A stretch of DNA of 23,932 bases from IMG/VR virus record IMGVR_UViG_3300047562_003403, positions 1 through 23,932 of that record; one strand, 5' to 3'. Numbering within the stretch: the stretch's first letter is position 1; every line of letters starts with the position of its first letter. Positions 3,281 to 23,924 of this stretch are shown one piece after another. The DNA comes from a virus. The position numbers and the translations under genes are program-made. The notes below the pieces were generated by a model, which worked only from the letters and a program-made list of their open reading frames with translations, made no database searches and was not told the DNA's origin.

Positions 3281-3701
3281 CTACATTAACTCCGCTGGCT
3301 TTTAAAAAGTCAATGCCTGCTGTGTCACGATAATTATTTTTATAGTATACAGTATAAATTCCAGTCTGGTAAATTAATTTTGCACATTCTATGCAAGGTG
3401 CGTGTGTACAAAACATAATTCCATTTTTACCACTCTCAGTTGATTTAGCAAGTTTAGTAATAGCATTTGACTCTGCGTGTAATACCTGAGGTTTAGTTTT
3501 AAGAATAGGACTACCAACATCATCTATACTTACACAATCTTCACACTCATTATCCCAGCCACTAGGCATACCGTTGTATCCAATACTAATAATACGATCA
3601 TCTTTTACAACAATTGCACCAACTTTTAATCTAACTGCGTAGGATAATTGGGCAAATCTTTCAGCCACATCCATATATGCTTTTGCGAATTTATGCTTCA
3701 T
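3264..3701 (-). CDS. Deoxycytidylate (dCMP) deaminase
   Basis: Zinc enzyme converting dCMP to dUMP, supplying precursor for dTMP in phage DNA synthesis. Taking the ATG at 3701 it has 145 residues; the frame is open upstream to 3755 but that would overlap the ferredoxin gene by 65 bp, and alignment with the family starts at [15 protein letters not shown]. The catalytic motif HAESNA is at 75-80 (His75 zinc ligand, Glu77 proton shuttle) and APCIECAK at 101-108 supplies the two zinc cysteines, Cys103 and Cys106. GYNGMPSGW (41-49) is the usual substrate-loop block. A further Cys pair (ECEDC, about 52-55) could belong to the second zinc site seen in T4-type enzymes. It overlaps the ferredoxin gene by 11 bp and is the last gene of the operon. 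Its ribosome-binding site is weak (AGAGC), suggesting coupling. Confidence 0.93.
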
Positions 3702-4020
3702 TTTTTGCTCTAAATAGTTTTGTTTTATCTTCTGCGCTATTAGAATACTTTTCATATTCAGGCATTGGATCTTGCATTTGAGTAATGTTAGGCCATTTCA
3801 CAGAAAAATATTCATTATGTTTGTACCAAGGATCTTCTTTATTATCAGTTTGATAAATCGCATCCTCCGGACATTCGGGTACACATACTCCACAATCAAT
3901 ACACTCATCAGGATTAATAACAAGCATATTTGGTCCTTCATAGAAACAATCAACCGGGCAAACTTCTACACAGGTTGTGTGTTTACAATTAATACATTTA
4001 TCATTTACTAAGTGTGCCAT
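3691..4020 (-). CDS. fdxA: Seven-iron ferredoxin (FdxA type, [3Fe-4S][4Fe-4S])
   Basis: 109-residue electron-transfer protein. The N-terminal half matches the bacterial 7Fe ferredoxin pattern: Cys9, Cys12, Cys17, Cys21 and Cys25 in [17 protein letters not shown], then [12 protein letters not shown] and [12 protein letters not shown] with Cys40, 43, 46 and 50. By comparison with Azotobacter ferredoxin I (one residue shorter at the start), Cys9, 17 and 50 would bind the 3Fe cluster and Cys21, 40, 43 and 46 the 4Fe cluster. The C-terminal ~50 residues (KWPNITQM and a charged tail) are also typical of FdxA. The ATG is 1 bp after the upstream stop and the gene overlaps dCMP deaminase by 11 bp. It probably works in the infected cell with host reductases; its partner is unknown. 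All expected cysteines are present, so it looks functional. Confidence 0.93.
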
Positions 4021-4021
4021 T

Positions 4022-4270
4022 CTATTGTCCTATCCAGTTATATACGCCTCGAATCGCTAATAGCAAATAGAATAGTTCCATTAACGCTCTTGGCACATCT
4101 TTATCTTTTATACCCATCCATATCCATATGCTACAACTCATAGATGCTATTCCCCATCCCATCCATTGTAGTTTTGGATCACCACCACTTAATAAGAAAG
4201 CGCCGACCATAGCCAGAACAAATCCCAACCATCGCCATCCGTCGATCTTATTGTAATATCTTATTTTCAT
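4022..4270 (-). CDS. Small three-helix inner-membrane protein
   Basis: 82 residues with three hydrophobic stretches: about 12-29 ([18 protein letters not shown]), 34-54 ([20 protein letters not shown]) and 62-80 ([18 protein letters not shown]). Trp-rich and with short polar loops (GDPK, KDKDVPR). The last two helices remind me of the C-terminal end of PnuC-type nicotinamide riboside transporters (Trp-rich helix, short loop, then a helix ending in Gly-Tyr-x-Trp), but it is far too short for a full PnuC, so this is only a hint; a SemiSWEET-sized transporter is another thought, without its Pro-Gln motif. The start overlaps the gp44 stop as ATGA, so translation is coupled. Function not known. 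Confidence 0.8.
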
Positions 4271-5184
4271 TTTAACCTTGCAAGTTTAATCAAAACTGCT
4301 GCTAAGTTAATTTCAGGATCGGCAACTAGTGTGTGATCTACTAGTCCTTGTTTAATAATTAAAACTGCGGTATCTTGCTTTTCTTCTTCGCCAAAGATTT
4401 CTAAATTATCATACAACCAACGATAAACTTCTTCCATCTCTTCAGCACGAAGTTTTCCGCATAGTAGTTTACGTGCTTCGCTAATTTTTCCATCTTTGAA
4501 TAGTTCGACCATATCGAACTTCCAGTCTGCTTCTCCACCATCACTTTTGTTAGGTGTGTTTAATGTATTGTTGTTTACGTTTTGCTGTACTAGATTAATA
4601 CATTTACGAAGATCTGGATAAGCAACTTTAACATAATTGTCTAAAGTATCGAGATCAAAATCAACTTTTTCTTCAACTAAAATAGTTGCAACACGGGCAG
4701 TGAATTCTGTAATGTCTGTACGTTCAACGTGAAAGCCTTGACAACGACTGTGTATAGCAGGAATAATTCTGTTAGGATAATTGCAAGTTAAAATAAAACG
4801 TGCTGTGCTGTGATACTCTTCCATTACGCCACGCAGTGCCGCCTGTGCGTTTGGACTCAGGTAATCAGCCTCATCTAGTAACACAACCTTGAACGGACCA
4901 AATGGCATCATCTGTACAAAGTTGACAATCTTATCACGAACATCATCTACTGAGTTTGTTCGCGATGCGTTGATCTCTAACACATCATAATCTTCAATAC
5001 CAAGTTCGTTAATAAGAACTTTTGCCAAAGTTGTTTTACCAATACCTGCTACACCACTTAGTAAAAGATGCGGAATACTTTTGTCTTTTACCCAAGTATT
5101 AATTTGTTTCTTTTGATGTTCGTCTCGAAATACATATCCTTCGATAGTCTTAGGACGATACTTTTCTACCCATAGTTCTTTCAT
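4267..5184 (-). CDS. 44: Sliding clamp loader large subunit, T4 gp44-like AAA+ ATPase
   Basis: 305 residues. RFC/gp44 family: LWVEKYRPKTI at the N-terminus, Walker A GVAGIGKTT (44-52), Walker B VVLLDEAD (100-107), sensor-1 TCN (133-135) and the SRC motif (146-148) that supplies the arginine finger in clamp loaders. The C-terminal third (about 215-305) is helical, matching the collar domain. In T4, gp44 with gp62 loads the gp45 clamp for the replicative polymerase. The length fits the family (T4 gp44 is about 319 residues). It is coupled on both sides by 4 bp ATGA overlaps. Neither gp62 nor gp45 is adjacent, unlike T4, where 62, 44 and 45 are consecutive. Confidence 0.93.
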   Translation of the reverse strand: MKELWVEKYRPKTIEGYVFRDEHQKKQINTWVKDKSIPHLLLSGVAGIGKTTLAKVLINELGIEDYDVLEINASRTNSVDDVRDKIVNFVQMMPFGPFKVVLLDEADYLSPNAQAALRGVMEEYHSTARFILTCNYPNRIIPAIHSRCQGFHVERTDITEFTARVATILVEEKVDFDLDTLDNYVKVAYPDLRKCINLVQQNVNNNTLNTPNKSDGGEADWKFDMVELFKDGKISEARKLLCGKLRAEEMEEVYRWLYDNLEIFGEEEKQDTAVLIIKQGLVDHTLVADPEINLAAVLIKLARLK

Positions 5185-7593: not shown

Positions 7594-7992
7594 TTAGACT
7601 CTGTGATTGTCGATAAACATACCCGGATCAAATGATGCTGTTGATCCGTTAGAGTATTCTTGACCGAAATAGTTTAAATCAGGCTCTTCGTCTGACCAAG
7701 CAAGGATTGCTGTTAGTTCAACTTTTTGAACTTCAATCTCACCTAGGTTAGGATCTTTAATTTTTACTTTGCGAGTCCAACGGCCGTGTTCTACTAAAAT
7801 ATAATTGCCTACTTGATACTCGTCTTTATTTTCAGGACCTTTTGCATATACTTTTGCCCATCGAGGTTTAACTCCGTGTGCTTTTGCATCATCAGAACCG
7901 ATGATTAAACCACTTTTGGTTTTAATTTCACCAAAATACATACCGTGTACTAATACATCCGAATGGATAGGTCTTAAGGAACCTTCAATCAT
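7594..7992 (-). CDS. GroES/gp31-like co-chaperonin
   Basis: 132 residues. The order of motifs fits the Cpn10 fold: LRPIHSDVLV at the start, a mobile-loop region, then SGLIIG (compare the same SGLIIG of T4 gp31 and GGI(I/V)IP of GroES), WAKVYAKGPENKDEYQVGNYILVEHG (about 45-70; the 'V..vGP.....vGd.vl...' strand-turn-strand) and a C-terminal strand VELTAILAW. A Cpn10-like protein would cap host GroEL and fit it for folding the capsid protein, as gp31 does in T4. Divergence is high, and a C-terminal ~30-residue tail (Asn/Ser/Gly/Asp-rich) goes beyond the usual length. AGGTGA precedes the ATG. It ends this late gene group, convergent with the small plus-strand gene. Confidence 0.65.
   Translation of the reverse strand: MIEGSLRPIHSDVLVHGMYFGEIKTKSGLIIGSDDAKAHGVKPRWAKVYAKGPENKDEYQVGNYILVEHGRWTRKVKIKDPNLGEIEVQKVELTAILAWSDEEPDLNYFGQEYSNGSTASFDPGMFIDNHRV
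7624..7648. repeat. 8 bp perfect inverted repeat at the end of the co-chaperonin gene
   Basis: CGGATCAA (7624-7631) and TTGATCCG (7641-7648) with a 9-base loop, inside the last codons of the co-chaperonin gene and 34 bp after the stop of the convergent plus-strand gene. No T tract follows in either direction, so it is not a standard terminator; it could stabilise or end messages from the convergent pair. It may also be chance in coding sequence. Confidence 0.35.
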
Positions 7993-8005: not shown

Positions 8006-8242
8006 TTAGTTTTTCTTATTATTGCCGCGATTAACAATTTCTTCTTTAACCGCTCTTGGGTTCTTTTTGTAATAGTCTGCTAGTACTTGTTCTCTAGTAC
8101 GAACAATCTTTCCGCCTGCTCCTAGTTCATCGCCACGAGCATTTACTTTAGCATTGCCTACCGCTGGTAGCAATTCATTGCGTAGGTTAAGTTTTTCCAT
8201 ATCAATTTCTTTACCACGCATACTTCTTACTGTTTTAGCCAT
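8006..8242 (-). CDS. Unknown small basic protein (78 residues)
   Basis: No membrane segment or signal. Begins AKTVRSMRGKEIDMEKLNLR, then LLPAVGNAKVNARGDELGAG and KIVRTREQVLADYYKKNP, ending in a Lys/Asn-rich tail. Basic, with a central Gly-rich turn and a C-terminal helix. Its shape is that of a small nucleic-acid or scaffold-binding protein, but I know no function. The ATG is 1 bp after the stop of the DnaE-like gene and its Shine-Dalgarno (AAAGGAG) is formed by the final Lys-Gly-Val codons of that gene, so the two are coupled. Confidence 0.75.
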   Translation of the reverse strand: MAKTVRSMRGKEIDMEKLNLRNELLPAVGNAKVNARGDELGAGGKIVRTREQVLADYYKKNPRAVKEEIVNRGNNKKN

Positions 8243-8243
8243 T

Positions 8244-8717
8244 TTATACTCCTTTAAAGAATTCGTTTAATGGTATATCGTATTTAACACTGTCGATCCG
8301 ATGGACCCCTAATAAATGGAGAACATAACTGGCTACACTAGATCCACGTCCTACACCCCAAACTATATTATTTTTTCTCAATGTATCTACAATGTATTTT
8401 ATTTGTTTTAACAGCATAAACATACCTTGTTTTTCAAAATGATGTAGTTCGGTCTGTACTCTGGCCATATACTTTTCATCATTAGGACATTGTTCCAAAA
8501 CATAGTTATAGATATCCATATCTCTATAACTGTCTGGCATAAACCAATTATTTGGATTTATTTCTGTTTTGGGTTTTGGATAATTTAAAAATTCTTGTTC
8601 TATACGTTTAATATAGTTGTCGAGGTTTTCAGAACAAACACAATGCTCAAGGATATCCGGACCGTGAGTTACAACACCTTCTACTAGTTGTTCTATTGTA
8701 TTTGTTTTAGTCGACAT
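8244..8717 (-). CDS. Stand-alone fragment of a C-family DNA polymerase (DnaE/PolC) palm
   Basis: 157 residues. From about residue 80 to the end it follows the start of the bacterial Pol III alpha palm: YMARVQTELHHFEKQGM matches the 'RL..EL..I...GF' helix, IKYIVDTLRKNNIVWGVGRG matches 'I.W....GI.VGPGRG', then SSVASYVLHLLGVHRID and VKYDIPLNEFF match 'SGAGSLVAYALGITDLDPL.Y.LLFERF'. GRGSS (123-127) is the hGS-type motif of the beta-nucleotidyltransferase fold. The protein ends right where full DnaE continues to its catalytic PDFDVDF, so the metal-binding aspartates are absent, as are the PHP domain, fingers and clamp-binding parts. It should be inactive as a polymerase. The N-terminal 80 residues have no recognisable relation. 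The start overlaps the previous gene by 11 bp, and no frameshifted continuation is found downstream. Confidence 0.75.
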   Translation of the reverse strand: MSTKTNTIEQLVEGVVTHGPDILEHCVCSENLDNYIKRIEQEFLNYPKPKTEINPNNWFMPDSYRDMDIYNYVLEQCPNDEKYMARVQTELHHFEKQGMFMLLKQIKYIVDTLRKNNIVWGVGRGSSVASYVLHLLGVHRIDSVKYDIPLNEFFKGV

Positions 8718-8943
8718 TAATTAGTTGATCCAAATCTTTATCATTTGCATTATTAAGTTTTGCTGTAAGAGCTCTTCTTCTTACCTCATCTCTATATATT
8801 GTAACAAATGTTGCGATTTGTGTCAACAGGTGACTTTTACCTAAACGTGCCGCAGAGTTATATTTTCTGCTCAATTCAGATATACGTGACTCTAATTCTG
8901 AATCTTTTAATTCTTGAACGTTTTCCTCGAAAGGGTGAAACAT
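8707..8943 (-). CDS. Unknown small helical protein (78 residues)
   Basis: The ATG at 8943 shares its A with the upstream stop (TAATG), so translation is coupled; the open frame extends to 8997 but lies inside the upstream gene there. It begins MFHPFEENVQELKDSELESR and continues with ISELSRKYNSAARLG, ATFVTIYRDEVRRRALTAKL, ending DKDLDQLINVD. Nearly all alpha-helical, charged, heptad-like in places, with no cysteines and no membrane segment. It looks like a small oligomeric assembly or regulatory protein; I do not recognise a family. It is followed by the DnaE-like gene with an 11 bp overlap. Confidence 0.75.
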   Translation of the reverse strand: MFHPFEENVQELKDSELESRISELSRKYNSAARLGKSHLLTQIATFVTIYRDEVRRRALTAKLNNANDKDLDQLINVD

Positions 8944-9530
8944 TATGCAAATTGTCCTAGATAGCGCATAAAGATTACTTCTGCACTGTGTCTCCATACT
9001 TCAACAAAGATTGGATTAACAGTTGAACTCAAAGTAAGTAGTGCAGGGAAATCTGGGTCTTTTTTAATAACCGTTCCGCCTGAAGTAACAAAATTTACAG
9101 TGTGACTTTCACTTCCTGAATTATAAAGTTCGAGAGTTATTTTACCCATACCGATTGGAGTAGTTTCTGTAGTAAAGACTGGGTCTCCAGGGAAGTTCAA
9201 GAAATCCATATTGATGTTTGCACTTACACGATAAATTTGATAACCACCGTTTTCGTAGTCAATCGTAGTAGGACTTGCTGAAACAGTTCCGCCGTCGAAT
9301 TTTTGTGTTCTGTTGTTTTGTAGTAATGCACGTTGAATTTTGTTTAATTCAAAGTCATTGTCAGCATTTAGTTTTGCAGTGTTATCTTGCAAGTCTGTGA
9401 TTTCGTCTTTAGCACTTCTTAGACTTGTTTTGATTGTATCAAAGTTATCTCTGAACACTTGAGTATCATTATCTCTTCCTGCTACAGGAAAGTTCTCATT
9501 AATACTCAAATAATTAATTGTACTTGCCAC
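8943..9530 (-). CDS. Virion structural protein with gp9/gp10-like N-terminal motif
   Basis: 195 residues. The start is GTG at 9530 with GGAG 7 bp upstream. The N-terminus INYLSINENFPVAGRDND, then TQVFRDNFDTIKTSL, has the same layout as the modules in the fibre genes upstream (a short strand, Gly-Asp turn, an amphipathic helix containing NF and ending near ELY/TIK). A heptad-like coiled coil follows (SAKDEITDLQDNTAKLN, about 39-55), then a beta-rich part with Gly/Thr/Ser turns (about 80-195) ending in VEVWRHSAEVIFMRYLGQ. The architecture of short anchor, coiled coil and beta head fits a small trimeric fibre or baseplate protein. It is first in a transcript from the late promoter at 9558-9565. 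The precise place in the particle is unknown. Confidence 0.75.
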   Translation of the reverse strand: MASTINYLSINENFPVAGRDNDTQVFRDNFDTIKTSLRSAKDEITDLQDNTAKLNADNDFELNKIQRALLQNNRTQKFDGGTVSASPTTIDYENGGYQIYRVSANINMDFLNFPGDPVFTTETTPIGMGKITLELYNSGSESHTVNFVTSGGTVIKKDPDFPALLTLSSTVNPIFVEVWRHSAEVIFMRYLGQFA

Positions 9531-13926: not shown

Positions 13927-15813
13927 TTACGCCCCCGTTCCAGAATCAAGTTTCAGTTTGGCTGCTATTCTGTTTATAGCCTCGCCAATAGTAGTCGGAG
14001 GAGTTCCATTCCAATCACTTGGTGTAGTGGCAGTATATGTAATTTCTCCCAGATCATTAATAATTACGCTTGAGTCTTCTGCAAAAACAGTACCTATAAA
14101 GTTTCCTCGAATATCATCAGAAACAATAGGACCAACAATTTTTCCATCAACAGCATCAACTAACAGTGTTGAATCTTGTGCAAACACACTTCCTGTTACA
14201 TCTCCTGTATGATATCCTTCAAGATTACCTGTTAGGTTTCCTGTTATAGTTCCTGTAACTATTAGGTCTACTGTTTCTATCTCGTTATTAGCAGTAAAAG
14301 TATCTGCCTCTATAGATACTGCATTAATAGTGCTTCCTGATATGTTAGTAGAAGTTACTGATGTAGTGTCTACTATACCTACAATCTTTCCTGCTACACC
14401 ATCTACCAACAATGTACTATCGTCTGCAAATACTGAACCTGATATATCGCCTGTATGATAACCTGTAGTGTCACCTACTAGGTTTCCTGTAACGTTACCT
14501 GTAACGTTACCTGTTAGATTACCATATACATCTGCATATACGTCTGCAACAATTCTTCCAAGAATTCCGTCAACTAATAGTGTCGAGTCATCAGCAAATA
14601 CTGAACCGTTAATATCAATATTTTGATCAACGGAGATTGTCATTGTATCAGCAACAGCATCGTTAACAATGTTAATACCGTAACCAGTTATAAATTCTAA
14701 TGTGTCAGAAGTGCTGTCCGGACTAATTGTTGGCTGTCCGAGTACAACAAAACTTTGGAAAGTTGGAACCGCAGGAGCACTGTTTGAAACGTTAACAATA
14801 CCTGTTGCTGGATCTGCTGAAACTGTAATACCAAAGCCTGCTTCAACTTTAATAACACCTGTATTGGTAAGTGAAATACCACCAGTACCTGCACTTGTGC
14901 TAATACCTAAACCAGCAGCTCTACCGGTAGCCTCTGTTGGTAAAGATGTGCTATTTGATACGCTAGTTACACCAGTATTAGTTAATGTAATATTTCCTGT
15001 TGGTGTGCTAACACCAATACCTGTACTTCCTGTTAACTGTGTAACACCATCATTAATAAATGTAATACTATCTGCGTCACTTCCTGCAACTAATTGAACA
15101 CCAGTACCTCCATAGAATGATAATGTGTCATTAGTATGATCTGCTTCTACAGTATCACCGTCATCTAGGTTAATATATCTAAAATATCTTTTCTCAGGAT
15201 CTATGATTAAATCACCATTGATTGTTGAATCGGCTGGAAGATTAATTACTCCTCCAGCACCTGTAATTTGTGCTGTACCAATCCATAAACCATTATCTTC
15301 ATATCCCGGTGTTGAACTAGTTTCATCTAGATGTAATTCTTTCCATTGTTTTGCAGATGTACCTAGTGTATATAAATTAGTCGCTGCTGGTACAATGCTA
15401 GAACCAAAATTTGAAAAATCTAAATTACTAAATCCTAATAGTCCTTGAGTTTGACCACCGGAAACATATGTTCCGTAACCTGTTCCATTTACTGATACTG
15501 TAAGTGCATCGTCGGTATACAGAGAAAATGTTGTAGTTGTTAATACATTGGCATAATAGGTATTACCATTTAGTTCGGTCATACCAACTATATCAGTAAT
15601 TGTTACTTGTTGTCCATCAGTTAAACCGTGTGCTGAAGTAGTTGTTACTACAACTGGATTAGCCTTAGTAGCAGAAGAAATATCTTTTTGTTCACCGCCT
15701 GTAAGAGTTGCACCAATCAGTGTGAAGTTTTCATTGATTTGATCAAATGAATCTTTGATATTCTGCCATAGTAGTGGTGGTTTGCCTGGAGTAATATTAT
15801 TGCTATATCCCAT
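13927..15813 (-). CDS. Tail-fibre-like protein with internal repeats
   Basis: 628 residues, ATG at 15813 sharing one base with the stop of the giant gene (TAATG), GGGGAGA upstream. The N-terminal module is degenerate: NITPGKPPLLWQNIKDSFD, then QINENFTLIGATL (about 6-37). Residues about 57-110 hold one 'AHGL...NGNTYY...TTFSLY' module also found several times in the giant protein. LGTSAKQWKELHLD (150-163) is the fibre unit shared with the 392-residue protein. A block of GSVFADDSTLLVDG is found at 403-416 and 459-472, with variants at 541-554 (GSVFAQDSTLLVDA) and 574-587 (GTVFAEDSSVIIND); TGNV/TGNL tetrapeptides lie between copies. It ends with DWNGTPPTTIGEAINRIAAKL. The organisation is that of a long trimeric beta-fibre. 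Confidence 0.85.
   Translation of the reverse strand: MGYSNNITPGKPPLLWQNIKDSFDQINENFTLIGATLTGGEQKDISSATKANPVVVTTTSAHGLTDGQQVTITDIVGMTELNGNTYYANVLTTTTFSLYTDDALTVSVNGTGYGTYVSGGQTQGLLGFSNLDFSNFGSSIVPAATNLYTLGTSAKQWKELHLDETSSTPGYEDNGLWIGTAQITGAGGVINLPADSTINGDLIIDPEKRYFRYINLDDGDTVEADHTNDTLSFYGGTGVQLVAGSDADSITFINDGVTQLTGSTGIGVSTPTGNITLTNTGVTSVSNSTSLPTEATGRAAGLGISTSAGTGGISLTNTGVIKVEAGFGITVSADPATGIVNVSNSAPAVPTFQSFVVLGQPTISPDSTSDTLEFITGYGINIVNDAVADTMTISVDQNIDINGSVFADDSTLLVDGILGRIVADVYADVYGNLTGNVTGNVTGNLVGDTTGYHTGDISGSVFADDSTLLVDGVAGKIVGIVDTTSVTSTNISGSTINAVSIEADTFTANNEIETVDLIVTGTITGNLTGNLEGYHTGDVTGSVFAQDSTLLVDAVDGKIVGPIVSDDIRGNFIGTVFAEDSSVIINDLGEITYTATTPSDWNGTPPTTIGEAINRIAAKLKLDSGTGA
14053..14607 (-). 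repeat. Four copies of a ~42 bp coding repeat (GSVFADDSTLLVDG)
   Basis: Copies lie at 14607-14566, 14439-14398, 14193-14152 and 14094-14053, the last most diverged. Protein identity is high between the first two (13-14 of 14 residues) while third-codon positions differ widely, so the repeats are old or held by selection at the protein level. Spacing between copies is 168, 246 and 99 bp, all multiples of three. Confidence 0.85.
14486..14521 (-). repeat. Tandem 12 bp repeat encoding Thr-Gly-Asn-Val units
   Basis: Two identical 12 bp copies (14486-14497, 14498-14509) followed by a diverged third (14510-14521), coding for successive TGNV/TGNV/TGNL tetrapeptides. A similar degenerate run (TGTITGNLTGN) lies near 14224-14260. 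The unit length is a multiple of three, so gain or loss would keep the frame. Confidence 0.8.
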
Positions 15814-18800
15814 TATGATCTCCCCACTGCCACTTGAATTGTTCCAATATGATCACTATCATAATCTTCGATCGCCTTACCAACTATTGTTCCTACTTTA
15901 GGATCTGTTGTTACTGTTGCTACACCGTGTATTCCTGCTGTAACAAGAACATCACCTTTCTTGATTTTTCCAACTACTTTACAAGGAACTCTACCAGTTA
16001 GTGCAACAAGATTTTTCAATCCTGGACACGCAGTATACATCACGTATGCCGCAGTATTTGAAACAACACCAGCAACTCTTGTGTCACTGTTTTTATTTGT
16101 AGTTGTGACTTCCTTGTCACCACCAAATACTAACACTGTTCCGACTTCGTATTCCTTGTCACCTTCGTAGTATTCTGCAACGTCAGCACTATAAGTTGCT
16201 TCTAAACGTGATTCGTTTGGTGAAGTTCCTGTAAGTGTCCAACGTCCTGTAATTGTACCTGATGTTGTATTACCACCAGTGGTTAATGAAAGAGTTTGTA
16301 CTTGTGATGCTGTAATTGGTGCATTGGCCAAACCATTTTGTGTTTTAAATATATGGCTGTCGTTCCAATACTCAGTACGTTTGTCTGCGGCAAGTGTGCC
16401 ATCATTTAGATAGATACCACCATTGGTACCGTATGTATGTAATCTAATGTAACCACTAGATCCACTCAATGAACCTGTATCAATTGCTTCTTTGCCGTCA
16501 ATGTTTAATTGTGAAAGATCAGCAACACGAGCACCGAAGTCACCATTGCTATCTCTGTTTATAAGTTTATTGTTATCAGCAGTACCACTGTATGAAGCAG
16601 AAGTTTCGATAACAGTGTAGTCTACATCATTAGCGTTACTACCAGAATTAATTCTTCTCAATAAGCCTGTTACATTGTATTGAGATTTCTTAATACCGCC
16701 ACCACTATCAACAACAGTTGACATACCGATGTCTGCTGCATCTGCACTAGAAAGTCCGTTGTTACCTAATACACTCTTGGCAGCGACCTGTGCAAGTTTA
16801 TTTTTAGCAACACCGTTATTTTTAATTGTAACCCAACCGTTGCTTATTGTAAATTGTGCATCATCAAAACTCGCAATACCACTTGCTGCTTGAAGTACTT
16901 CGGCAGCACCTGTTGGTGCAAGAGCAGAAGTAGTAGCCAATTGCATAGTAAGTTTACTTTGCTCAATACCAGCAGCACTGTTAACGTCAGCATTTATAAT
17001 TGTGTCTGGTTCGATTTGTGCATCGATGGTGTTTGCTGTTGAGTCAATATTAAATGTGATATCACCTTGAACAGTTGCGTTGATAGCGTCACGTTCATTA
17101 CCTGTAAATACTAAAATTTGATTTGCTTGTAGATCAGTGAATGAAAAGTCAGACAAGTTGTCAAATCTAATTGCTGCTAGGTTAGCAGCATCATTTGGAT
17201 TAACTGGATCAGCAACGTTGATAATTTTATTGTTGCCAAGGTCCATAGCATTCTTCATATTCAACGAACCATCTAATGGCATAAAGCCACCACTCAATGG
17301 CGGAATTAGTTGAGCTTGTTCAATCGGTGCTCCACTGTGTGAAGTACCTAAACGTCTTTCAATATAAAGTCTTGTTGCGTTTTCTGTTGGAACAGTATCA
17401 ACAGCGTTGTCAGTCATACCTGAGTCTGTTGAGAATTCAGCAATAGGAACACCACGTTTAAATCCAATACCGTCCAAGTTACTCAACGCAATCGCAGCAG
17501 AGAATGTAACTTGACCTGTACCTTGGTCAACGCTGAAGTAAGGACCAACTCTAAAGTTACCAAATTGGTCAGTGGTCACATAGAATACACGTCCTACATC
17601 ACGTTCATCTGTTTCAGTATCTTGGTTAAGAGCATTAACCGGCGGACCATAAATTTCGTTTGGATAGTTTGTATCCGCATATGATCCTGTACCAACTTCA
17701 AGTAAATCGTGTGATGTAACACGAGTTAATGAAATTCTGATTGTTAGATTACCTTCTGCTCCAGTTGTTCTAATAGGAACAGCACTTCTTATAGTATAGG
17801 TAGCACCGTATGCAATAACACTGTCTTCTAATGGGCGGTTAAGAGTAATTCTTGCCCAAGGTTCACTTAAATCATCTTCTGATTCATATGTGGAAATAAT
17901 ATATTCTTCACCGTTGAATATAATTTTACTTCCAGCAACTCTTGCACGTTCTTGCGGAGCAACTGGAACAACAGCAAAATTATCATCGCCTACTCTACCT
18001 GTTACCAAACCATATGTATGAATACCACTTTGTGATCCACTTGTTTCTAAAGGAATCGCAGCAGCAAGACTTGGATGTTCAACACTGATAGTAAATGTAT
18101 CAAGAGTTGGAGTAGTAAACACAAAGAAATGTGATTGATTGTTAAGTCCGGTTGGTAGTGTACCACTGGTATCAAATCTAATTACATCTCCAACATTTAA
18201 TCCGTGACCTACTGATGTAACAATACAAGGAGCAGCAACAGTTAGTGTACAAGTAGTGGGACTAGTTACATATTCACCTGGTTTATAGATTGTTAAATCT
18301 ATATAGTTATAGTTTTCTCTAAGTGTTGTTTTACCTAGTCCTTCAACAATTCCTGAAATAGTTCCGGTACCTGTTGTGGTAGTTGCGATACCACTTAGTG
18401 TGGGAGCAATATCAATTTTAAAATCGATATTAGTTAAACCTTCTTCTAGAACATAATATTTTTCTCCTTCTAGAATTCCGGTTGGTAAGTCTCCAGTTGA
18501 TTCAAAACTTAACAGGTAATTTCTTTGCTGTTTGTGAGGAATCTTTCCTTTAATATTTAAACTGGTACCATCAACAAACGATGTAAGTTTAGCACCGCCC
18601 GATGTTGCTGCTAATGTAAATTCATCATAGTTAGGTGTAGATTCAATATAATAAACAGTACCTGCTGTTAATCCGTTATCAGATGTCTTCGGAACAAAGA
18701 AATCTCCTGTTCTTAATCCGTGCGTTCTGTTAGTGGTAAACAATTCATTACTTGAAATGTCTGTTACTGTTATTAAGAAAGTGACCTTAGCAGGATCTGC

Positions 18801-21800
18801 TGCGGTAAATTCAACTTCTGATAAACCTCTCGAATCTACATAATCTTCAAATTGAAGAACACGATAAACGTCTGAGGATTCTTGTAGTCTTAAACCTGTG
18901 GAAGGTCTTGTAGCAACTTCAACAATATCACCTGTTAAAACAATCTGTGAGTTTGAACGCAATGACATCTTAGTGCCATTTGGAATAGCATCATATAAGC
19001 CTTCAAAGTTACCTGTTGTGTCACTGGTTAAGTTTAGACGTGCAACACCTGTTGGTAAATCTTGAGTTGTAACAGAAGTTACTGGATATCTATAAATTAG
19101 GTTACCGTGGTCAACTTCAAGTTCTGAGTTGTTTAGAGGAACATAGTCGTAATTTGTTACATAAACAAATAATCCGTTTGCTGTGTTAGCATATTGTGCA
19201 GTAGGGAAATAACAATCAACTCTTTGTGCTAGGTCATAATACATTGTTACTGGGGTCGGAACTTCTAATGGATCTGAACCCTCTGCAACAAGAGCATACA
19301 CACCGTGAGCACTAGAACCGCCAACTGAACGTATCTGTGCACCATTCAATGAATAGTAAGAAGTATAACAGTAGTATGTGAACATTGATACTGCTTCTGT
19401 CAAACCACCGTTGGTTGCAATTAGACCGTATCCCATATCAGCAACTTGTGTAAAGTCGTTTGATAGCATTGATCTGTTACCAGGCATCAACACTTCATAT
19501 GATCTTTGATATTTGATTGTTCCTGATCCTGAACTGGTAATTTCAACAGGCACAGCAGATGCTGTAAAGTCGGTTGAAATTCTAAATGTGTTTACTGTTA
19601 GGCCGCTCTCCATAACAAAATATTCACGACCTGCTTCAATTCCGCCCGGCAATGTTCCTGTTGATGTGAATTTAATAATTGAATCGGCCTGCAATCCGTG
19701 ATTGGCTTTATTAATAACGCCTATTGCTGCAACTGTTACGCTATCAATAGTAATAGCACCAGGAGTTTTAGTAAATGGTGTTGTTTCGTCAAGAACAAAT
19801 GTAGCCGTTGAACCAGCAGGATCATAAACATAATCTCTTACATAGTTGATTCTGTAAACAGTATCGTCAACAATAAAAGAAGCCGGAAGTTGTGGTATTC
19901 TATCAAGGCCGGCAACTTTAAGTCTTGTATTGCCTGTTCCTGCTATTGTTTCAGAGTGTAAGAACTGTAAGTTTCCTGCGAATCCATCAACAAACATACC
20001 TCCCGCAAATGTTTGACTATTAATTGATTTGGAGAATGAAGCACACTCCTGTGCGTATGGTGACTTAGCAAGAATTTGTCCAGTTGGGTCAAGTACTAAG
20101 GAGAAACCTCCGTGTCCTTGCATTGTGAGACCTTGCCAACGAACAGCATCGTTCGCCATAAACACGTCCATCTGATCGTTTTCTTTAGGATAGTTAACAC
20201 TTCCTGAACCGTCAATAACATCAACTAATGCTGCGACCAATGCAGTAACAATTGCTTCTGATCCTGATTCTTTAACATATGCATTGTCTTGTATCTGTGG
20301 GAATACATCTTGATAGGTATCACTAATTAAAATATTATTAATAATATTATTAACCAAGTATTCAACTCTTTGAATACCTAAAATTGTTTCAGACTTCTGT
20401 GTAGTAATTGCTAATCTACCGCTGGCATTTTGATAATATTTTAAACCTGCGGAAATAGTTCTATTGTATTCTCCCCACTTGATGTCAAACACCATAGCAT
20501 CAACAATAAGACCAACATCACGTTTACACAATGCTTCATTATAGGAAAACGTTGTTGTGAACGGAGAAATATTATTAACAATTTGATAATTGATCCAACC
20601 AATTACTTCGTTCTGAATAAAAACTTTGTTTAGTTTAATTAATTGTGCAGCGGATTTTCTACCACCGCCATTATTAATTTTAGGATAAACAGGTTCTGAT
20701 GTATCCTGTAGATAATGATAACCAAATAGTCTATCAGTAACCTGCATTCCGTCGATCACAGGATCACGTCTAAATTTAATAAATGCCCAAGGAGAACTTG
20801 AAGTTCCTGGTTTTGGTTTTACAATACAACGTCTAAATTCATCACCCACAACAGAAACGTTCTGTGGAACTTTTAGTGGAAGGTTTTCTTCGTAGATACC
20901 ACTTTCAACTAATACTGTAATTTGTGTTTGGTTAGTGATGTCACCGTATGAAATTGGTTCGCCAATTTGGAAGTTTCCATACTTAATGTCAACATCAAAA
21001 ATCTCGTTTCCTAAACTATCTAATGCACCTTCGTGTGCAAGAATTTGTGCAAGAGCACCTGACTCTTCACCACGTAAGTATAACCCTTCTCTAATATCTC
21101 TTGTTCTAAATGCTACAGGAGTATCAGTTAAAACGTCACCTGTAAAGTCTGTACGATAACCTTCTGTTTTTAGTAAGAACCTTGGAAGGTCACCAACTAC
21201 ATTAGGAACAGTTGTAAATCCTGTACCTTCGTCTGTAATTTCAACAGAAGTAATTACTCCGGCAACAACTGTTGCTACACCAAAGGCTCCTCTGGTTTCT
21301 CCACCACCTGTAATTCTAATTGATACTAGACTGTAACCACTACCACCACTACTAATACTAACACCGTTAACTTTGTATGTAATATTAAATGTTGCACCAT
21401 TACCAAACGCACTATCTGTTGTAGACGTTACTCCTGTGCTTCCAGGCAATGCTGTATAGTTACCTGAAGATAATTGTCTAAATGTTAAAATAGCACCTGG
21501 TGTAGTAAGTGTTGTTAAAACTTCGTATCTAGCAGCATCGCCTGTGCCGCCTGCAATTTCTATAATGTCTCCAGCTCTGTAGTTTGTACCACCATTTGCT
21601 AGACTGATAGTATCAACACTTAGTGTTGGTGTTCCAGAAAATCCAGCACCACTATCTGGAGATGTTTCAACAGCATTAAGGATAACAATCCCACTGCCGT
21701 TGTTATATGTTAATAATTTTTTGTAAGGACCAATGTCATCATTGGATTCTAAAAGAATTTCTTCAGCACGTTTTAGTGCTGCTTCAATGGATCTGTATGC

Positions 21801-22505
21801 GTATGCTAATGCACGACCTTGTAGATCATCTGATACACCAGGACGCTCATCTGAACCACTGGTAGCAACATATAAGTTAACACTAGAACCGAACGATGAA
21901 CTATCTACATATTGTTTTGTAGCAGCAATTAATCCGCCATACAATTCATCATCATCTGGTTCTGGAGATCTAGAAAGGATCAGTGGACCACTCATTCTAC
22001 CAAATGAAGAGTTAACTCCACCAGTCTCAGGATCGATAGCATTTACACCAGCACGAGAAATTTTAGTGTCTACATATTCTTTATTTGCTGCTTCATCGTC
22101 TGTAATGGGAGTTACTAGATCTTGAATTCTATATTGATTACCACCCGATCTTGCAGATAGATCTCCACCTAACTGCGGTGATTGGTCACCGGAAATTTCA
22201 CTAAACTCTGTTGAAACAATAATTTCGTTAGGGTTACTTGTGTCATCAATTGTAACACCAACACCACCAGTAATTTGTTTAAACTTAACGCCATCAGTGG
22301 TTTCATTGACTGTTAGTACTGCACCTTCTTGTCCTAAAAAGGTTTCTGGAGTATCATCTAGGCCAATAAATGTTAACCTTTCGCCCAGTCCTAATGAACT
22401 ATAGAGTTCTCTAAAGTTATCATTTACTTTAGTAAACGAAGCTCTAATACTATCGCCGGTTCCGTCGTTACCTACAGCACCTACATCAATTACTTTTCTC
22501 GCCAT
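15813..22505 (-). CDS. Giant fibre-like virion protein (2230 residues)
   Basis: Largest gene in the window; ATG at 22505 with AGGGGAT upstream. Domains by residue: 4-40 the shared gp10-like module (VIDVGAVGNDGTGD, SFTKVNDNFRELY); 208-225 and 525-560 parts of a right-handed beta-helix of pectate-lyase type (LYVATSGSDERPG; VLVESGIYEENLPLKVPQNV); 290-440 three Gly-Gly-x-x-Tyr units (SLANGGTNYRAGDIIEI, SISSGGSGYSLVSIRI, EITDEGTGFTTVP); four HGL/GTLPTG modules at about 934-975, 1259-1300, 1330-1365 and 1431-1475; 1735-1765 PLSGGFMPLDGSLNM with D-L-x-N-x-K-I-x-N-V-A-D-P, frequent in tail fibres; about 2105-2230 a C-terminal domain beginning SADVAEYYEGD and containing GRVPCKVVGKIKKGDVLVTA, found at the end of many bacterial and phage surface proteins, perhaps a trimerising or chaperone domain. 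No catalytic residues identified. Probably a baseplate-attached long fibre or tailspike. Confidence 0.88.
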   Translation of the reverse strand: MARKVIDVGAVGNDGTGDSIRASFTKVNDNFRELYSSLGLGERLTFIGLDDTPETFLGQEGAVLTVNETTDGVKFKQITGGVGVTIDDTSNPNEIIVSTEFSEISGDQSPQLGGDLSARSGGNQYRIQDLVTPITDDEAANKEYVDTKISRAGVNAIDPETGGVNSSFGRMSGPLILSRSPEPDDDELYGGLIAATKQYVDSSSFGSSVNLYVATSGSDERPGVSDDLQGRALAYAYRSIEAALKRAEEILLESNDDIGPYKKLLTYNNGSGIVILNAVETSPDSGAGFSGTPTLSVDTISLANGGTNYRAGDIIEIAGGTGDAARYEVLTTLTTPGAILTFRQLSSGNYTALPGSTGVTSTTDSAFGNGATFNITYKVNGVSISSGGSGYSLVSIRITGGGETRGAFGVATVVAGVITSVEITDEGTGFTTVPNVVGDLPRFLLKTEGYRTDFTGDVLTDTPVAFRTRDIREGLYLRGEESGALAQILAHEGALDSLGNEIFDVDIKYGNFQIGEPISYGDITNQTQITVLVESGIYEENLPLKVPQNVSVVGDEFRRCIVKPKPGTSSSPWAFIKFRRDPVIDGMQVTDRLFGYHYLQDTSEPVYPKINNGGGRKSAAQLIKLNKVFIQNEVIGWINYQIVNNISPFTTTFSYNEALCKRDVGLIVDAMVFDIKWGEYNRTISAGLKYYQNASGRLAITTQKSETILGIQRVEYLVNNIINNILISDTYQDVFPQIQDNAYVKESGSEAIVTALVAALVDVIDGSGSVNYPKENDQMDVFMANDAVRWQGLTMQGHGGFSLVLDPTGQILAKSPYAQECASFSKSINSQTFAGGMFVDGFAGNLQFLHSETIAGTGNTRLKVAGLDRIPQLPASFIVDDTVYRINYVRDYVYDPAGSTATFVLDETTPFTKTPGAITIDSVTVAAIGVINKANHGLQADSIIKFTSTGTLPGGIEAGREYFVMESGLTVNTFRISTDFTASAVPVEITSSGSGTIKYQRSYEVLMPGNRSMLSNDFTQVADMGYGLIATNGGLTEAVSMFTYYCYTSYYSLNGAQIRSVGGSSAHGVYALVAEGSDPLEVPTPVTMYYDLAQRVDCYFPTAQYANTANGLFVYVTNYDYVPLNNSELEVDHGNLIYRYPVTSVTTQDLPTGVARLNLTSDTTGNFEGLYDAIPNGTKMSLRSNSQIVLTGDIVEVATRPSTGLRLQESSDVYRVLQFEDYVDSRGLSEVEFTAADPAKVTFLITVTDISSNELFTTNRTHGLRTGDFFVPKTSDNGLTAGTVYYIESTPNYDEFTLAATSGGAKLTSFVDGTSLNIKGKIPHKQQRNYLLSFESTGDLPTGILEGEKYYVLEEGLTNIDFKIDIAPTLSGIATTTTGTGTISGIVEGLGKTTLRENYNYIDLTIYKPGEYVTSPTTCTLTVAAPCIVTSVGHGLNVGDVIRFDTSGTLPTGLNNQSHFFVFTTPTLDTFTISVEHPSLAAAIPLETSGSQSGIHTYGLVTGRVGDDNFAVVPVAPQERARVAGSKIIFNGEEYIISTYESEDDLSEPWARITLNRPLEDSVIAYGATYTIRSAVPIRTTGAEGNLTIRISLTRVTSHDLLEVGTGSYADTNYPNEIYGPPVNALNQDTETDERDVGRVFYVTTDQFGNFRVGPYFSVDQGTGQVTFSAAIALSNLDGIGFKRGVPIAEFSTDSGMTDNAVDTVPTENATRLYIERRLGTSHSGAPIEQAQLIPPLSGGFMPLDGSLNMKNAMDLGNNKIINVADPVNPNDAANLAAIRFDNLSDFSFTDLQANQILVFTGNERDAINATVQGDITFNIDSTANTIDAQIEPDTIINADVNSAAGIEQSKLTMQLATTSALAPTGAAEVLQAASGIASFDDAQFTISNGWVTIKNNGVAKNKLAQVAAKSVLGNNGLSSADAADIGMSTVVDSGGGIKKSQYNVTGLLRRINSGSNANDVDYTVIETSASYSGTADNNKLINRDSNGDFGARVADLSQLNIDGKEAIDTGSLSGSSGYIRLHTYGTNGGIYLNDGTLAADKRTEYWNDSHIFKTQNGLANAPITASQVQTLSLTTGGNTTSGTITGRWTLTGTSPNESRLEATYSADVAEYYEGDKEYEVGTVLVFGGDKEVTTTNKNSDTRVAGVVSNTAAYVMYTACPGLKNLVALTGRVPCKVVGKIKKGDVLVTAGIHGVATVTTDPKVGTIVGKAIEDYDSDHIGTIQVAVGRS

Positions 22506-22857: not shown

Positions 22858-23184
22858 TTATACAGCGAAACTTTCGCCGCAACCGCAACTAGATGTTACG
22901 TTAGGATTTCTAATTTGAAGATAGGAACCGAATGTTTCTTCTACAAAGTCAATTGTGGTTCCGATAACATAAAGCAGGCTGGCAGAATCTATTGCTAGAT
23001 CTCCGTTTCTTAATTGAATTATTTCATCGTCAAACTCTTTAGAATCTGACATTTCCCATAGGTAAGAAAAGCCGGCGCACCCGCCGCCTTTTACTTTCAG
23101 ACGTACGACGGGTTTGCCTTCTTTTTCTATTAGGCGTTCTAGATGCCTAATTGCTGATTCTGTAAGATCAACAGCCTGTGGCAT
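22858..23184 (-). CDS. A-type iron-sulfur carrier (IscA/ErpA/HesB family)
   Basis: 108 residues from the ATG at 23184; an in-frame upstream ATG at 23232 would overlap the membrane-protein gene by 47 bp and is unlikely. The family signature is complete: Cys36 in VKGGGCAGFSY, and Cys100 and Cys102 in the C-terminal SSCGCGESF, with 63 residues between the first two cysteines. LTESAIRHLERLI at the start and IGTTIDFVEE in the middle also fit. Such proteins receive and deliver [2Fe-2S] or [4Fe-4S] clusters. HesB/IscA-like genes are known in marine cyanophages. Candidate clients in this window include the seven-iron ferredoxin. It is third in the group with SOD and a membrane protein. Ribosome-binding site weak (AAAAG), so translation may depend on coupling with the gene before it, whose stop is 1 bp away. 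Confidence 0.93.
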   Translation of the reverse strand: MPQAVDLTESAIRHLERLIEKEGKPVVRLKVKGGGCAGFSYLWEMSDSKEFDDEIIQLRNGDLAIDSASLLYVIGTTIDFVEETFGSYLQIRNPNVTSSCGCGESFAV

Positions 23185-23185
23185 C

Positions 23186-23356
23186 TTACTTTTCTTTTTT
23201 CCACAAGGTCCAAGCACCATAAGCAATTGCACCGTATGCTACTAGTTTTGCTAATGGTCCTGCGATTAAAACTACTACACCTACACCAATTAGAACGGCT
23301 CCGTCCCAAGAGGTTCTTTCGTCAAGTCTTTCTTTAATCCAAGTAATAGGATTCAT
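23186..23356 (-). CDS. Small membrane protein (56 residues)
   Basis: Starting at the ATG at 23356 (AAGGAG 6 bp upstream, inside the last codons of the SOD gene); an ATG at 23389 in the same frame has no support. Residues 1-17 are polar (MNPITWIKERLDERTSW), then DGAVLIGVGVVVLIAGPLAKLVAYGAIAYGAWTLW forms one long or two short hydrophobic helices broken by Gly-Pro, ending KKEK. It looks like a tail-anchored or hairpin membrane protein. No family function is known to me. Lying between SOD and the Fe-S carrier, it is probably co-expressed with them. A holin-like role could be imagined from size, but nothing beyond topology supports it. Confidence 0.8.
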   Translation of the reverse strand: MNPITWIKERLDERTSWDGAVLIGVGVVVLIAGPLAKLVAYGAIAYGAWTLWKKEK

Positions 23357-23357
23357 A

Positions 23358-23924
23358 TTATTCTCCTTGTAATCTGTCGTTAACGACATTCCAATTTATT
23401 ATCTTCCAAATATTGTTTAGATATTTGGATTTATCGTGTTGGTAATCAAGTGCGAAAGCGTGTTCCCACATATCTACCAACAGGGCAATTTTCATACCCT
23501 TTGTATATTTGTGGTTACTAATAGTTTTGATATTTCCTTTAGTATCCATATATACCCAGCCCGACCCTTGAATGCTCATTGCTGATTTAATAAACTCATC
23601 TTTGAACTTTTCAAAGTTGCCGTGCTTGTTATTAATTAGTTGTTCGCTAGTTCCACTAGGTTTATTTCCGACTGTAGGTGGTTGCATTTGAGGGAAGAAA
23701 ATATTATGTAATGTGGCACCTCCGTAGTTGAATGAGTCATCACCCTCTTTGTCATTGTATCTGCGTACATAAGCGGCCGCTAATTTTCCAAAATGATAAT
23801 CTACGGTATCCTTGCTCATTACAGGATCTAAATCATCACGTTTGTAAGGAAGGTTTTCCTGCACCAATTTATCACGGGCAGTTTCTGCTTCAATAATAAA
23901 ATCTCTATATTTTTTTAGGTCCAT
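23358..23924 (-). CDS. Iron/manganese superoxide dismutase
   Basis: 188 residues, full length for the family; ATG at 23924 near the right edge. Metal ligands: His44 (DYHFGK), His73 (ATLHNIFF), Asp151 and His155 (DMWEHAF). Tyr52, the active-site tyrosine (E. coli Mn-SOD Tyr34), is present. SGWVYMD and YLNNIWKIINWNVV are typical C-terminal blocks. Aligned by eye to E. coli SodA/SodB: the gateway His30 is replaced by Leu48; the Fe-SOD Gln69 position is Gly69 as in Mn-SOD; and the Mn-SOD Gln146 region has a shortened loop with His138 there instead. It has no signal peptide, so acts in the host cytoplasm, disproportionating superoxide. It is first of a three-gene set with a small membrane protein and an IscA-type carrier; the upstream promoter is outside the window. 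Confidence 0.93.
   Translation of the reverse strand: MDLKKYRDFIIEAETARDKLVQENLPYKRDDLDPVMSKDTVDYHFGKLAAAYVRRYNDKEGDDSFNYGGATLHNIFFPQMQPPTVGNKPSGTSEQLINNKHGNFEKFKDEFIKSAMSIQGSGWVYMDTKGNIKTISNHKYTKGMKIALLVDMWEHAFALDYQHDKSKYLNNIWKIINWNVVNDRLQGE

What the first reader, a model, noticed from the sequence alone, without database searches (positions are those of the whole stretch)
8244..8717. Stand-alone DnaE/PolC palm fragment that stops just before the catalytic aspartates
The last ~75 residues follow bacterial Pol III alpha up to the 'ERF' position, including the GRGS nucleotidyltransferase motif, then end exactly where PDFDVDF should come. No frameshifted continuation exists downstream, the gene is coupled to both neighbours, and the GRGS segment is intact, so it looks like a maintained small protein rather than debris. 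T4-like phages use a family B polymerase, so a C-family palm piece is unexpected. Possible roles: decoy or inhibitor of the host replisome, nucleotide sensor, or a structural scaffold that has lost chemistry.
Basis: partly seen in the sequence, partly recalled or inferred. Interest (0 to 1): 0.8.

Follow-up and report, generated by a model that had tools for sequence, protein, structure and literature searches.

The report
Half of a split phage DNA polymerase
The small gene is one half of a stripped-down bacterial-type DNA polymerase that large phages encode as two separate proteins from distant genes; this was predicted in 2021, and I found no experimental test of it.

Summary
Observation confirmed. 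ORF 8244-8717(-), 157 aa, matches PF07733 (E 2.5e-11) and the stand-alone family phrog_11127 (E 2.8e-40), and stops before the PDFDVDF aspartates. It is neither debris nor an orphan: in relatives the aspartates lie in a second stand-alone gene (phrog_11778) that starts at that motif and carries the third catalytic Asp and the H760-type steric-gate His. Ten of 10 named jumbo-phage records examined hold one of each, unlinked, plus a family B polymerase. The two AlphaFold models align to adjacent stretches of E. coli DnaE, 277-395 and 399-784. PHP, HhH_6 and the rest of PF07733 were not detected in those genomes.

Best reading: the nucleotide-binding N-half of a split minimal Pol III alpha that assembles in trans. 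Iyer et al. 2021 (PMC7824862) already predicted this system; the window is a new member from an uncultured virus. The window record (23.9 kb) does not reach the partner gene, so the partner is shown only in relatives. Assembly, catalysis and role are untested.

The parts
8244..8717 (-). N-half of split minimal DNA polymerase III alpha (157 aa, phrog_11127)
8340..8351 (-). GRGS nucleotide-binding motif (residues 123-126), invariant in the 49 sequences aligned
   Evidence: coordinates counted from the ORF start
8707..8997 (-). upstream overlapping small gene (phrog_15348, E 1.1e-4, unknown function); similar ORF in 67 of 90 loci
8006..8242 (-). downstream small gene (phrog_14844, unknown function); similar ORF in 88 of 90 loci
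7594..7992 (-). GroES/Cpn10-like co-chaperonin; similar ORF in 87 of 90 loci
4267..5184 (-). T4 gp44-type clamp loader subunit; similar ORF in 60 of 90 loci (many loci are too short to reach it)

Best explanation
The protein is the N-terminal, nucleotide-binding half of a split and miniaturised C-family (DnaE-like) DNA polymerase. It supplies the first part of the palm, including the GRGS loop that holds the incoming nucleotide's phosphates. A second protein of about 190-200 aa from a distant gene supplies the DxD aspartates, the third aspartate with its lysine two residues before, the RP motif and the K-x-H motif of the fingers. The two associate non-covalently to rebuild one active site without PHP, thumb, HhH, OB or clamp-binding parts. 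It probably works beside the phage's family B replicase near primase, helicase and clamp loader, as an accessory primer-extension, lagging-strand or repair polymerase. Shown here: homology, the complementary split, co-occurrence in relatives, residue conservation, absence of other Pol III alpha domains, gene neighbourhoods. Inferred: the partner in the window's own genome, complex formation, catalysis, dNTP preference, biological role.
For: N-half: PF07733 and phrog_11127. C-half first seen through PF17657, then as phrog_11778, starting at the DxD motif. One of each in 10 of 10 named phage records chosen (9 'complete', Vibrio 2.275 'partial') and in IMG/VR records G001 and G004, about 14-224 kb apart. 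Two tblastn listings of phages, each capped at 60 rows (of 69 and 63 records), share 59 accessions; the odd ones are XacN1, which does have a C-half, and PP728206, a 109-kb record. All 10 named phages also carry PolB. Models: N-half pLDDT 87.9, residues 55-157 on E. coli DnaE 277-395 (5fkv Z 8.9; best 5lew Z 10.9, 2.5 A over 98); C-half pLDDT 91.0, residues 1-190 on DnaE 399-784 (2hnh Z 9.1, 3.5 A over 184). Residues aligned with D401, D403, K553, D555 and H760 are identical in 53 of 53 aligned IMG/VR C-halves and in the 12 C-halves of the named phages, G001 and G004. H760 is the presumed steric gate of Pol III alpha (PMC8485763, passages). A Toprim primase-like gene is present in 140 of 140 C-half loci with more than 2.5 kb of downstream room.
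Against: No partner gene in the window; the record is only 23,932 bases. No complex was modelled and no activity is known. Three of 13 C-half IMG/VR records of 171-525 kb lack a detectable N-half: G008 280 kb, G011 199 kb, G024 201 kb. Four of 16 N-half records lack a C-half, all of 99-146 kb. No Foldseek hit of the N-half reaches E 0.001 (best 0.04; the five with probability above 0.5 are all Pol III alpha); the model is mostly helical, and the structure tool warns that Z under about 13 can be a common arrangement for helical models. Residues 1-53 of the N-half are not covered by the structural matches. Sequence profiles of the C-half reach bacterial DnaE only weakly. The position before the steric-gate His varies (S, A or P). 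A palm without a thumb may bind primer-template poorly.
Confidence: 0.82

Rival explanations
1. The pair assembles but is a non-polymerising nucleotidyltransferase (for example a terminal or protein/RNA nucleotidyltransferase) that kept the Pol-beta-type chemistry but, lacking a thumb, no longer copies a template.
For: PHP and HhH_6 not found in 11 of 11 genomes searched; PF07733 matches only within positions 12-99 of 260, once per genome, in 16 of 16; the fold belongs to the Pol-beta-like superfamily (recalled; also stated in PMC7824862, passage).
Against: The C-half keeps finger-domain motifs (RP, K-x-H) and the steric-gate His in 53 of 53 and 12 of 12, and its loci hold primase and often helicase genes.
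Confidence: 0.22
2. A catalytically silent structural subunit of the phage replisome.
For: Small size, no detected thumb, conserved place near GroES-like and clamp-loader genes.
Against: The three catalytic aspartates and GRGS are invariant in the sets aligned, which a silent scaffold would not need.
Confidence: 0.07
3. One reading: decoy or inhibitor of the host DnaE replisome.
For: Homology to DnaE.
Against: The matched DnaE stretch (277-395) does not include the clamp-, tau- or epsilon-binding regions (their positions are recalled); in 10 of 10 named phages it goes with a C-half that completes the active site.
Confidence: 0.02
4. A decaying remnant of a full-length phage DnaE.
For: Truncated relative to bacterial DnaE (noted for phage CBB in PMC5259590, passages).
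Against: Same end point in 68 of 68 ORFs examined, dN/dS about 0.2 for window against L001, conserved neighbours in 88 of 90 loci.
Confidence: 0.01

Closest known systems
Phage-specific split minimal DNA polymerase III alpha of group 2.2 jumbo phages (Iyer et al. 2021, PMC7824862; passages read)
   Same: Stand-alone N-terminal NTP-binding protein and stand-alone C-terminal Mg/DNA-template-binding protein from distantly located genes, with a family B polymerase and no other Pol III alpha domains; the paper itself suggests synthesis of one strand, or repair.
   Different: The window is a fragment of an uncultured virus whose nearest relatives found (71% identity at best) are metagenomic contigs; its partner gene is not in the record.
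Bacterial DnaE / DNA polymerase III alpha (C family)
   Same: GRGS, PDxDxDF, K-x-D, RP and K-S-H active-site motifs; palm and part of fingers fold.
   Different: No PHP, no thumb, reduced fingers, no HhH, and two polypeptides instead of one.
phrog_11127 and phrog_11778 (both labelled 'DNA polymerase')
   Same: The window protein scores E 2.8e-40 against phrog_11127; the partner in relatives scores down to E 2.8e-109 against phrog_11778.
   Different: The library descriptions shown do not say that the two are halves of one enzyme.
PF07733 as a marker of marine jumbo phage cluster PGC_A (PMC9123017, passages)
   Same: That paper reports PF07733 in 51.9% of PGC_A phages and as distinctive of that cluster.
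   Different: The passages seen do not mention a split enzyme or a partner gene.
Cyanobacterial DnaE split by a trans-splicing intein (recalled; mentioned in PMC3919608, passages)
   Same: DnaE encoded in two pieces.
   Different: No intein halves seen here, different split point (recalled), much smaller enzyme; joining must be non-covalent.

Membership tests
Split minimal phage Pol III alpha (PMC7824862) | Stand-alone N-terminal NTP-binding protein with GRGS | tested here: met
   Window ORF 8244-8717
Split minimal phage Pol III alpha (PMC7824862) | Stand-alone C-terminal protein with the Mg-binding aspartates, from a distant gene of the same genome | tested here: inconclusive
   Window record is 23.9 kb and holds none. 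In relatives: 12 of 16 N-half records, among them G001, whose N-half is about 54-55% identical to the window's
Split minimal phage Pol III alpha (PMC7824862) | Accompanied by a family B polymerase | tested here: inconclusive
   The window's own record was not searched for it and is a fragment; in relatives PF00136 in 13 of 16 N-half records, among them all 10 named phages and G001
Split minimal phage Pol III alpha (PMC7824862) | No other Pol III alpha domains in the genome | tested here: inconclusive
   Met in relatives: PF02811 0 of 11, PF14579 0 of 11; one PF07733 match per record within positions 12-99 in 16 of 16. Not testable in the 24-kb window record
C-family DNA polymerase (DnaE/PolC) | PHP, Palm, Thumb, Fingers in one polypeptide (definition from PMC3666897, passage) | tested here: not met
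   157-aa ORF with a partial palm only; relatives:
C-family DNA polymerase (DnaE/PolC) | Three active-site aspartates (D401, D403, D555) and H760 | tested here: not met
   Absent from the window protein itself; present in the partner protein of relatives, 53 of 53 and 12 of 12
C-family DNA polymerase (DnaE/PolC) | Template-directed DNA synthesis | not testable with these tools
   Needs biochemistry
Intein-split DnaE | Intein halves at the split | tested here: not met
   N-halves end 0-4 residues after the matched region in 68 of 68; in the C-half ORFs a start codon lies at or within a few residues of the DxD motif

The most novel reading that the evidence does not exclude
A two-subunit, thumb-less C-family DNA polymerase that keeps its steric gate and works with the phage's Toprim primase, extending or patching primers before hand-over to the family B replicase, much as Pol alpha does in eukaryotes. 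To my knowledge it would be the smallest C-family polymerase and the first built from two freely associating halves of one palm.
Probability: 0.2. Interest if true: 0.8.

Novelty: new member of a known kind. Interest (0 to 1): 0.5.

Why it matters
C-family polymerases are described as one large polypeptide with PHP, palm, thumb and fingers (PMC3666897, passage). A version of about 350 residues split through the palm, kept with its active-site residues across diverse large phages that already own a family B replicase, would set the minimum for this enzyme class and bears on whether such forms are ancestral (as PMC7824862 argues) or reduced. Both halves are small, so ordinary co-expression and primer-extension assays could settle it.

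Tried and rejected
Frameshifted or downstream continuation in the window: none. Decay: rejected. Intein splitting: rejected. Rest of DnaE in the same genomes: PHP and HhH_6 not found in 11 of 11. Cellular gene: a scan of genome contigs with the N-half alignment gave 7 loci, all on contigs of metagenome-assembled or uncultured genomes with unrelated labels, most simply phage contigs binned into them (not followed up). Plain sequence search of PDB with the window protein gave only E 0.1 for DnaE chains and an unrelated chitin deacetylase; with the family profile two Thermus-type DnaE sequences at E 0.0066; the C-half profile reached two DnaE chains at E 0.048 and 0.13, and a GCN4 construct at 0.22. 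DnaE or PolC descent: the NCBIfam hits are DnaE-type, but I did not confirm that a PolC model is in the library, and structural Z for PolC and DnaE chains overlap for both halves, so ancestry is left open. A second tblastn with the N-half of L058 reached 92 phage records, the extra ones being weak matches to ordinary phage DnaE proteins and some short unannotated contigs.

Papers: searches (openly licensed PubMed Central only; one search listed none). Opened for passages: PMC7824862, PMC3919608, PMC6102473, PMC5259590, PMC8485763, PMC3666897, PMC8504454, PMC9123017; none read in full. Of these only PMC7824862 describes the split enzyme. No experimental test appeared among the titles listed, but other listed papers were not opened.

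Rows dropped: 16 of 80 N-half IMG/VR loci were not examined. One search took 52 N-half proteins and kept 49 under 92% identity; the C-half alignment takes 30 loci and 23, out of 160. One search (PHROG model, a partly overlapping set with many records of 102-148 kb) found the N-half in only 4 of 13 C-half records. One search printed 7 of 12 C-halves because my pattern was too narrow; one search then checked all 12.

Full report
Check of the observation. The ORF at 8244-8717 on the minus strand is 157 aa with an ATG start. [quoted passage not shown] It contains GRGS and ends where PDFDVDF would begin. A profile of the missing part found nothing in six frames of the window.

It is a conserved stand-alone gene. 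tblastn found matches in 69 phage records; of the 60 listed, 58 are records of 284-490 kb. In IMG/VR 183 stretches encode a relative, and 80 were fetched. In 68 ORFs examined (64 of the 80 IMG/VR loci and 4 phage loci) the protein ends 0-4 residues after the matched region. In the 49 sequences aligned, GVGRGSS is invariant. Nei-Gojobori dN and dS for the window against L001 are 0.201 and 0.992. Over the 134 of 1176 pairs with dS between 0.1 and 1.5 the median dN/dS is 0.28 (range 0.08-0.62); for the C-half, 71 of 1378 pairs, median 0.14 (range 0.07-0.28). These dS values are high, so the ratios are rough. Conserved neighbours, counted as a similar ORF (phmmer E<=1e-3) anywhere in the locus: downstream 78-aa gene in 88 of 90 loci, GroES-like gene in 87, upstream 96-aa gene in 67, gp44 clamp loader in 60, with many loci too short to reach it. 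In XacN1 (L089) only the clamp loader was detected this way.

The missing half. Searching 16 records with PF17657 (DnaE fingers) gave weak matches in three. The ORFs there are 188-196 aa and begin MPDIDIDF, MDIDIDI or MDIDIDL. They belong to phrog_11778, which is present in 12 of the 16 N-half records: 10 of 10 named phages (PA5oct, Phosso, GAP32, Atu_ph07, SCTP-2, RaK2, Vibrio 2.275, XacN1, RAS14, 121Q) and the IMG/VR records G001 and G004. The four misses are records of 99-146 kb. Each of the 12 has one match for each half, about 14-224 kb apart by the coordinates given. In the reverse direction the N-half profile was found in 10 of 13 C-half IMG/VR records of 171-525 kb; the misses are G008 (280 kb), G011 (199 kb) and G024 (201 kb). 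An earlier scan with the PHROG model over a partly overlapping set, many of them records of 102-148 kb, found it in 4 of 13. Two phage tblastn listings of 60 rows each, out of 69 and 63 records, share 59 accessions.

Active site. In 53 aligned IMG/VR C-halves the residues aligned with E. coli D401, D403, K553, D555 and H760 are identical in 53 of 53; the K758 position is K in 48, R in 4, Q in 1; the S759 position is S in 30 and A in 23. In the 12 C-halves of the ten named phages, G001 and G004, both DxD aspartates, K-x-D, RP and the His are again present in 12 of 12, while the position before the His is S, A or P (P in 121Q, GAP32 and RaK2) and the K758 position is K or R. The correspondence is by motif, supported by the structural ranges below. 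H760 is the presumed steric gate against ribonucleotides in E. coli Pol III alpha (PMC8485763, passages). Its conservation suggests, but does not show, a preference for dNTPs.

Structure. AlphaFold2 models: window N-half, mean pLDDT 87.9 and pTM 0.69; G001 C-half, mean pLDDT 91.0 and pTM 0.78. Foldseek's best PDB hits are Pol III alpha for both: the N-half's best E is 0.04 and none reaches 0.001; the C-half's best is 6.4e-4. By VIA-align the N-half aligns to E. coli DnaE 277-395 (5fkv Z 8.9, 2.6 A, 97 residues), 5lew 304-415 (Z 10.9, 2.5 A, 98 residues; M. tuberculosis DnaE1, identity recalled) and Geobacillus PolC 825-967 (3f2c Z 7.0); the ten rows shown are all DNA polymerases, with the caution that the N-half is mostly helical and that Foldseek chose the candidates. 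The C-half aligns to E. coli DnaE 399-784 (2hnh Z 9.1, 3.5 A, 184 residues), 5lew 419-811 (Z 9.4) and 3f2c 971-1358 (Z 9.4); the first 13 rows are DNA polymerases and the next, unrelated, row has Z 2.9. The two ranges meet without overlap in E. coli DnaE, 5lew and 3f2c. The C-half's 184 aligned residues span 386 residues of DnaE, so about half of that stretch is missing; from the position of the sequence gap this includes the thumb (thumb position recalled). No complex was modelled.

What else is absent. PF02811 (PHP) and PF14579 (HhH_6) were found in 0 of 11 of these genomes, while the controls rang in 14 and 11 of 14. PF07733 has a single match per record, within positions 12-99 of 260, in 16 of 16. 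PF00136 (PolB) was found in 13 of 16, among them all 10 named phages.

Neighbourhood of the C-half. In 165 C-half loci an ORF like the 124-aa convergent gene of G001 is found in 163 and one like its Toprim primase-like gene in 148; both are present in 140 of 140 loci with more than 2.5 kb of downstream room, and in the 11 loci whose positions were printed the primase-like gene lies 1.5-3.6 kb downstream. Of five annotated phages looked at, a helicase follows in 121Q, Phosso and Vibrio 2.275, and Atu_ph07 has a gene labelled primase/helicase; in PA5oct the next gene is labelled hypothetical. So one half lies near the clamp loader and the other near primase and helicase. This supports a replication role but does not prove it.

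Known or new. Iyer et al. 2021 (PMC7824862; [quoted passage not shown] Other phage papers opened noted a truncated alpha subunit (PMC5259590), an alpha subunit (PMC6102473), or PF07733 as a mark of one marine jumbo-phage cluster (PMC9123017) (all passages). The finding is therefore a new member of that kind. Searches listed no title reporting an experimental test; they cover only openly licensed PubMed Central papers, and most listed papers were not opened.

Limits. The window record is 23,932 bases, so its own C-half and PolB are inferred from relatives such as G001. Assembly, catalysis, substrate and role are inferred.

Noticed in passing
window 3691-4020 (-): Phage-encoded 4Fe-4S dicluster-type ferredoxin with a DUF3470 tail (Pfam Fer4 E 3.1e-11, DUF3470 E 4.4e-8; phrog_8732).
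   Followed up: partly
window 22858-23232 (-) and 23358-23924 (-): An A-type Fe-S cluster biosynthesis protein (PF01521, E 2.4e-16) close to an Fe/Mn superoxide dismutase (PF02777, E 1e-24); with the ferredoxin this gives three iron/redox genes in 24 kb of phage DNA.
   Followed up: partly
window 15813-22505 (-): A 2230-aa tail-fibre-like protein (phrog_9851 E 3.5e-50).
   Followed up: no
PHROG families 13169 (463 positions) and 7513 (461 positions): Other phage families in which the stretch matching this protein lies near the C-terminal end (324-408 and 361-436); they may be further N-terminal pieces of split or interrupted polymerases.
   Followed up: no
IMG/VR record G008 (280 kb, locus L122): Carries the C-half but no N-half was detected by PHROG model or family profile; either an incomplete record or a diverged or lost N-half.
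   Followed up: partly
C-halves of 121Q, GAP32 and RaK2 (L176, L175, L177): The residue before the steric-gate His is Pro, where E. coli DnaE has S759 and the other C-halves have Ser or Ala; E. coli S759 variants change base and sugar selectivity (PMC8485763, passages).
   Followed up: no
L283-L289: Seven contigs labelled as uncultured bacteria or an archaeon carry the N-half; probably binned phage DNA.
   Followed up: no
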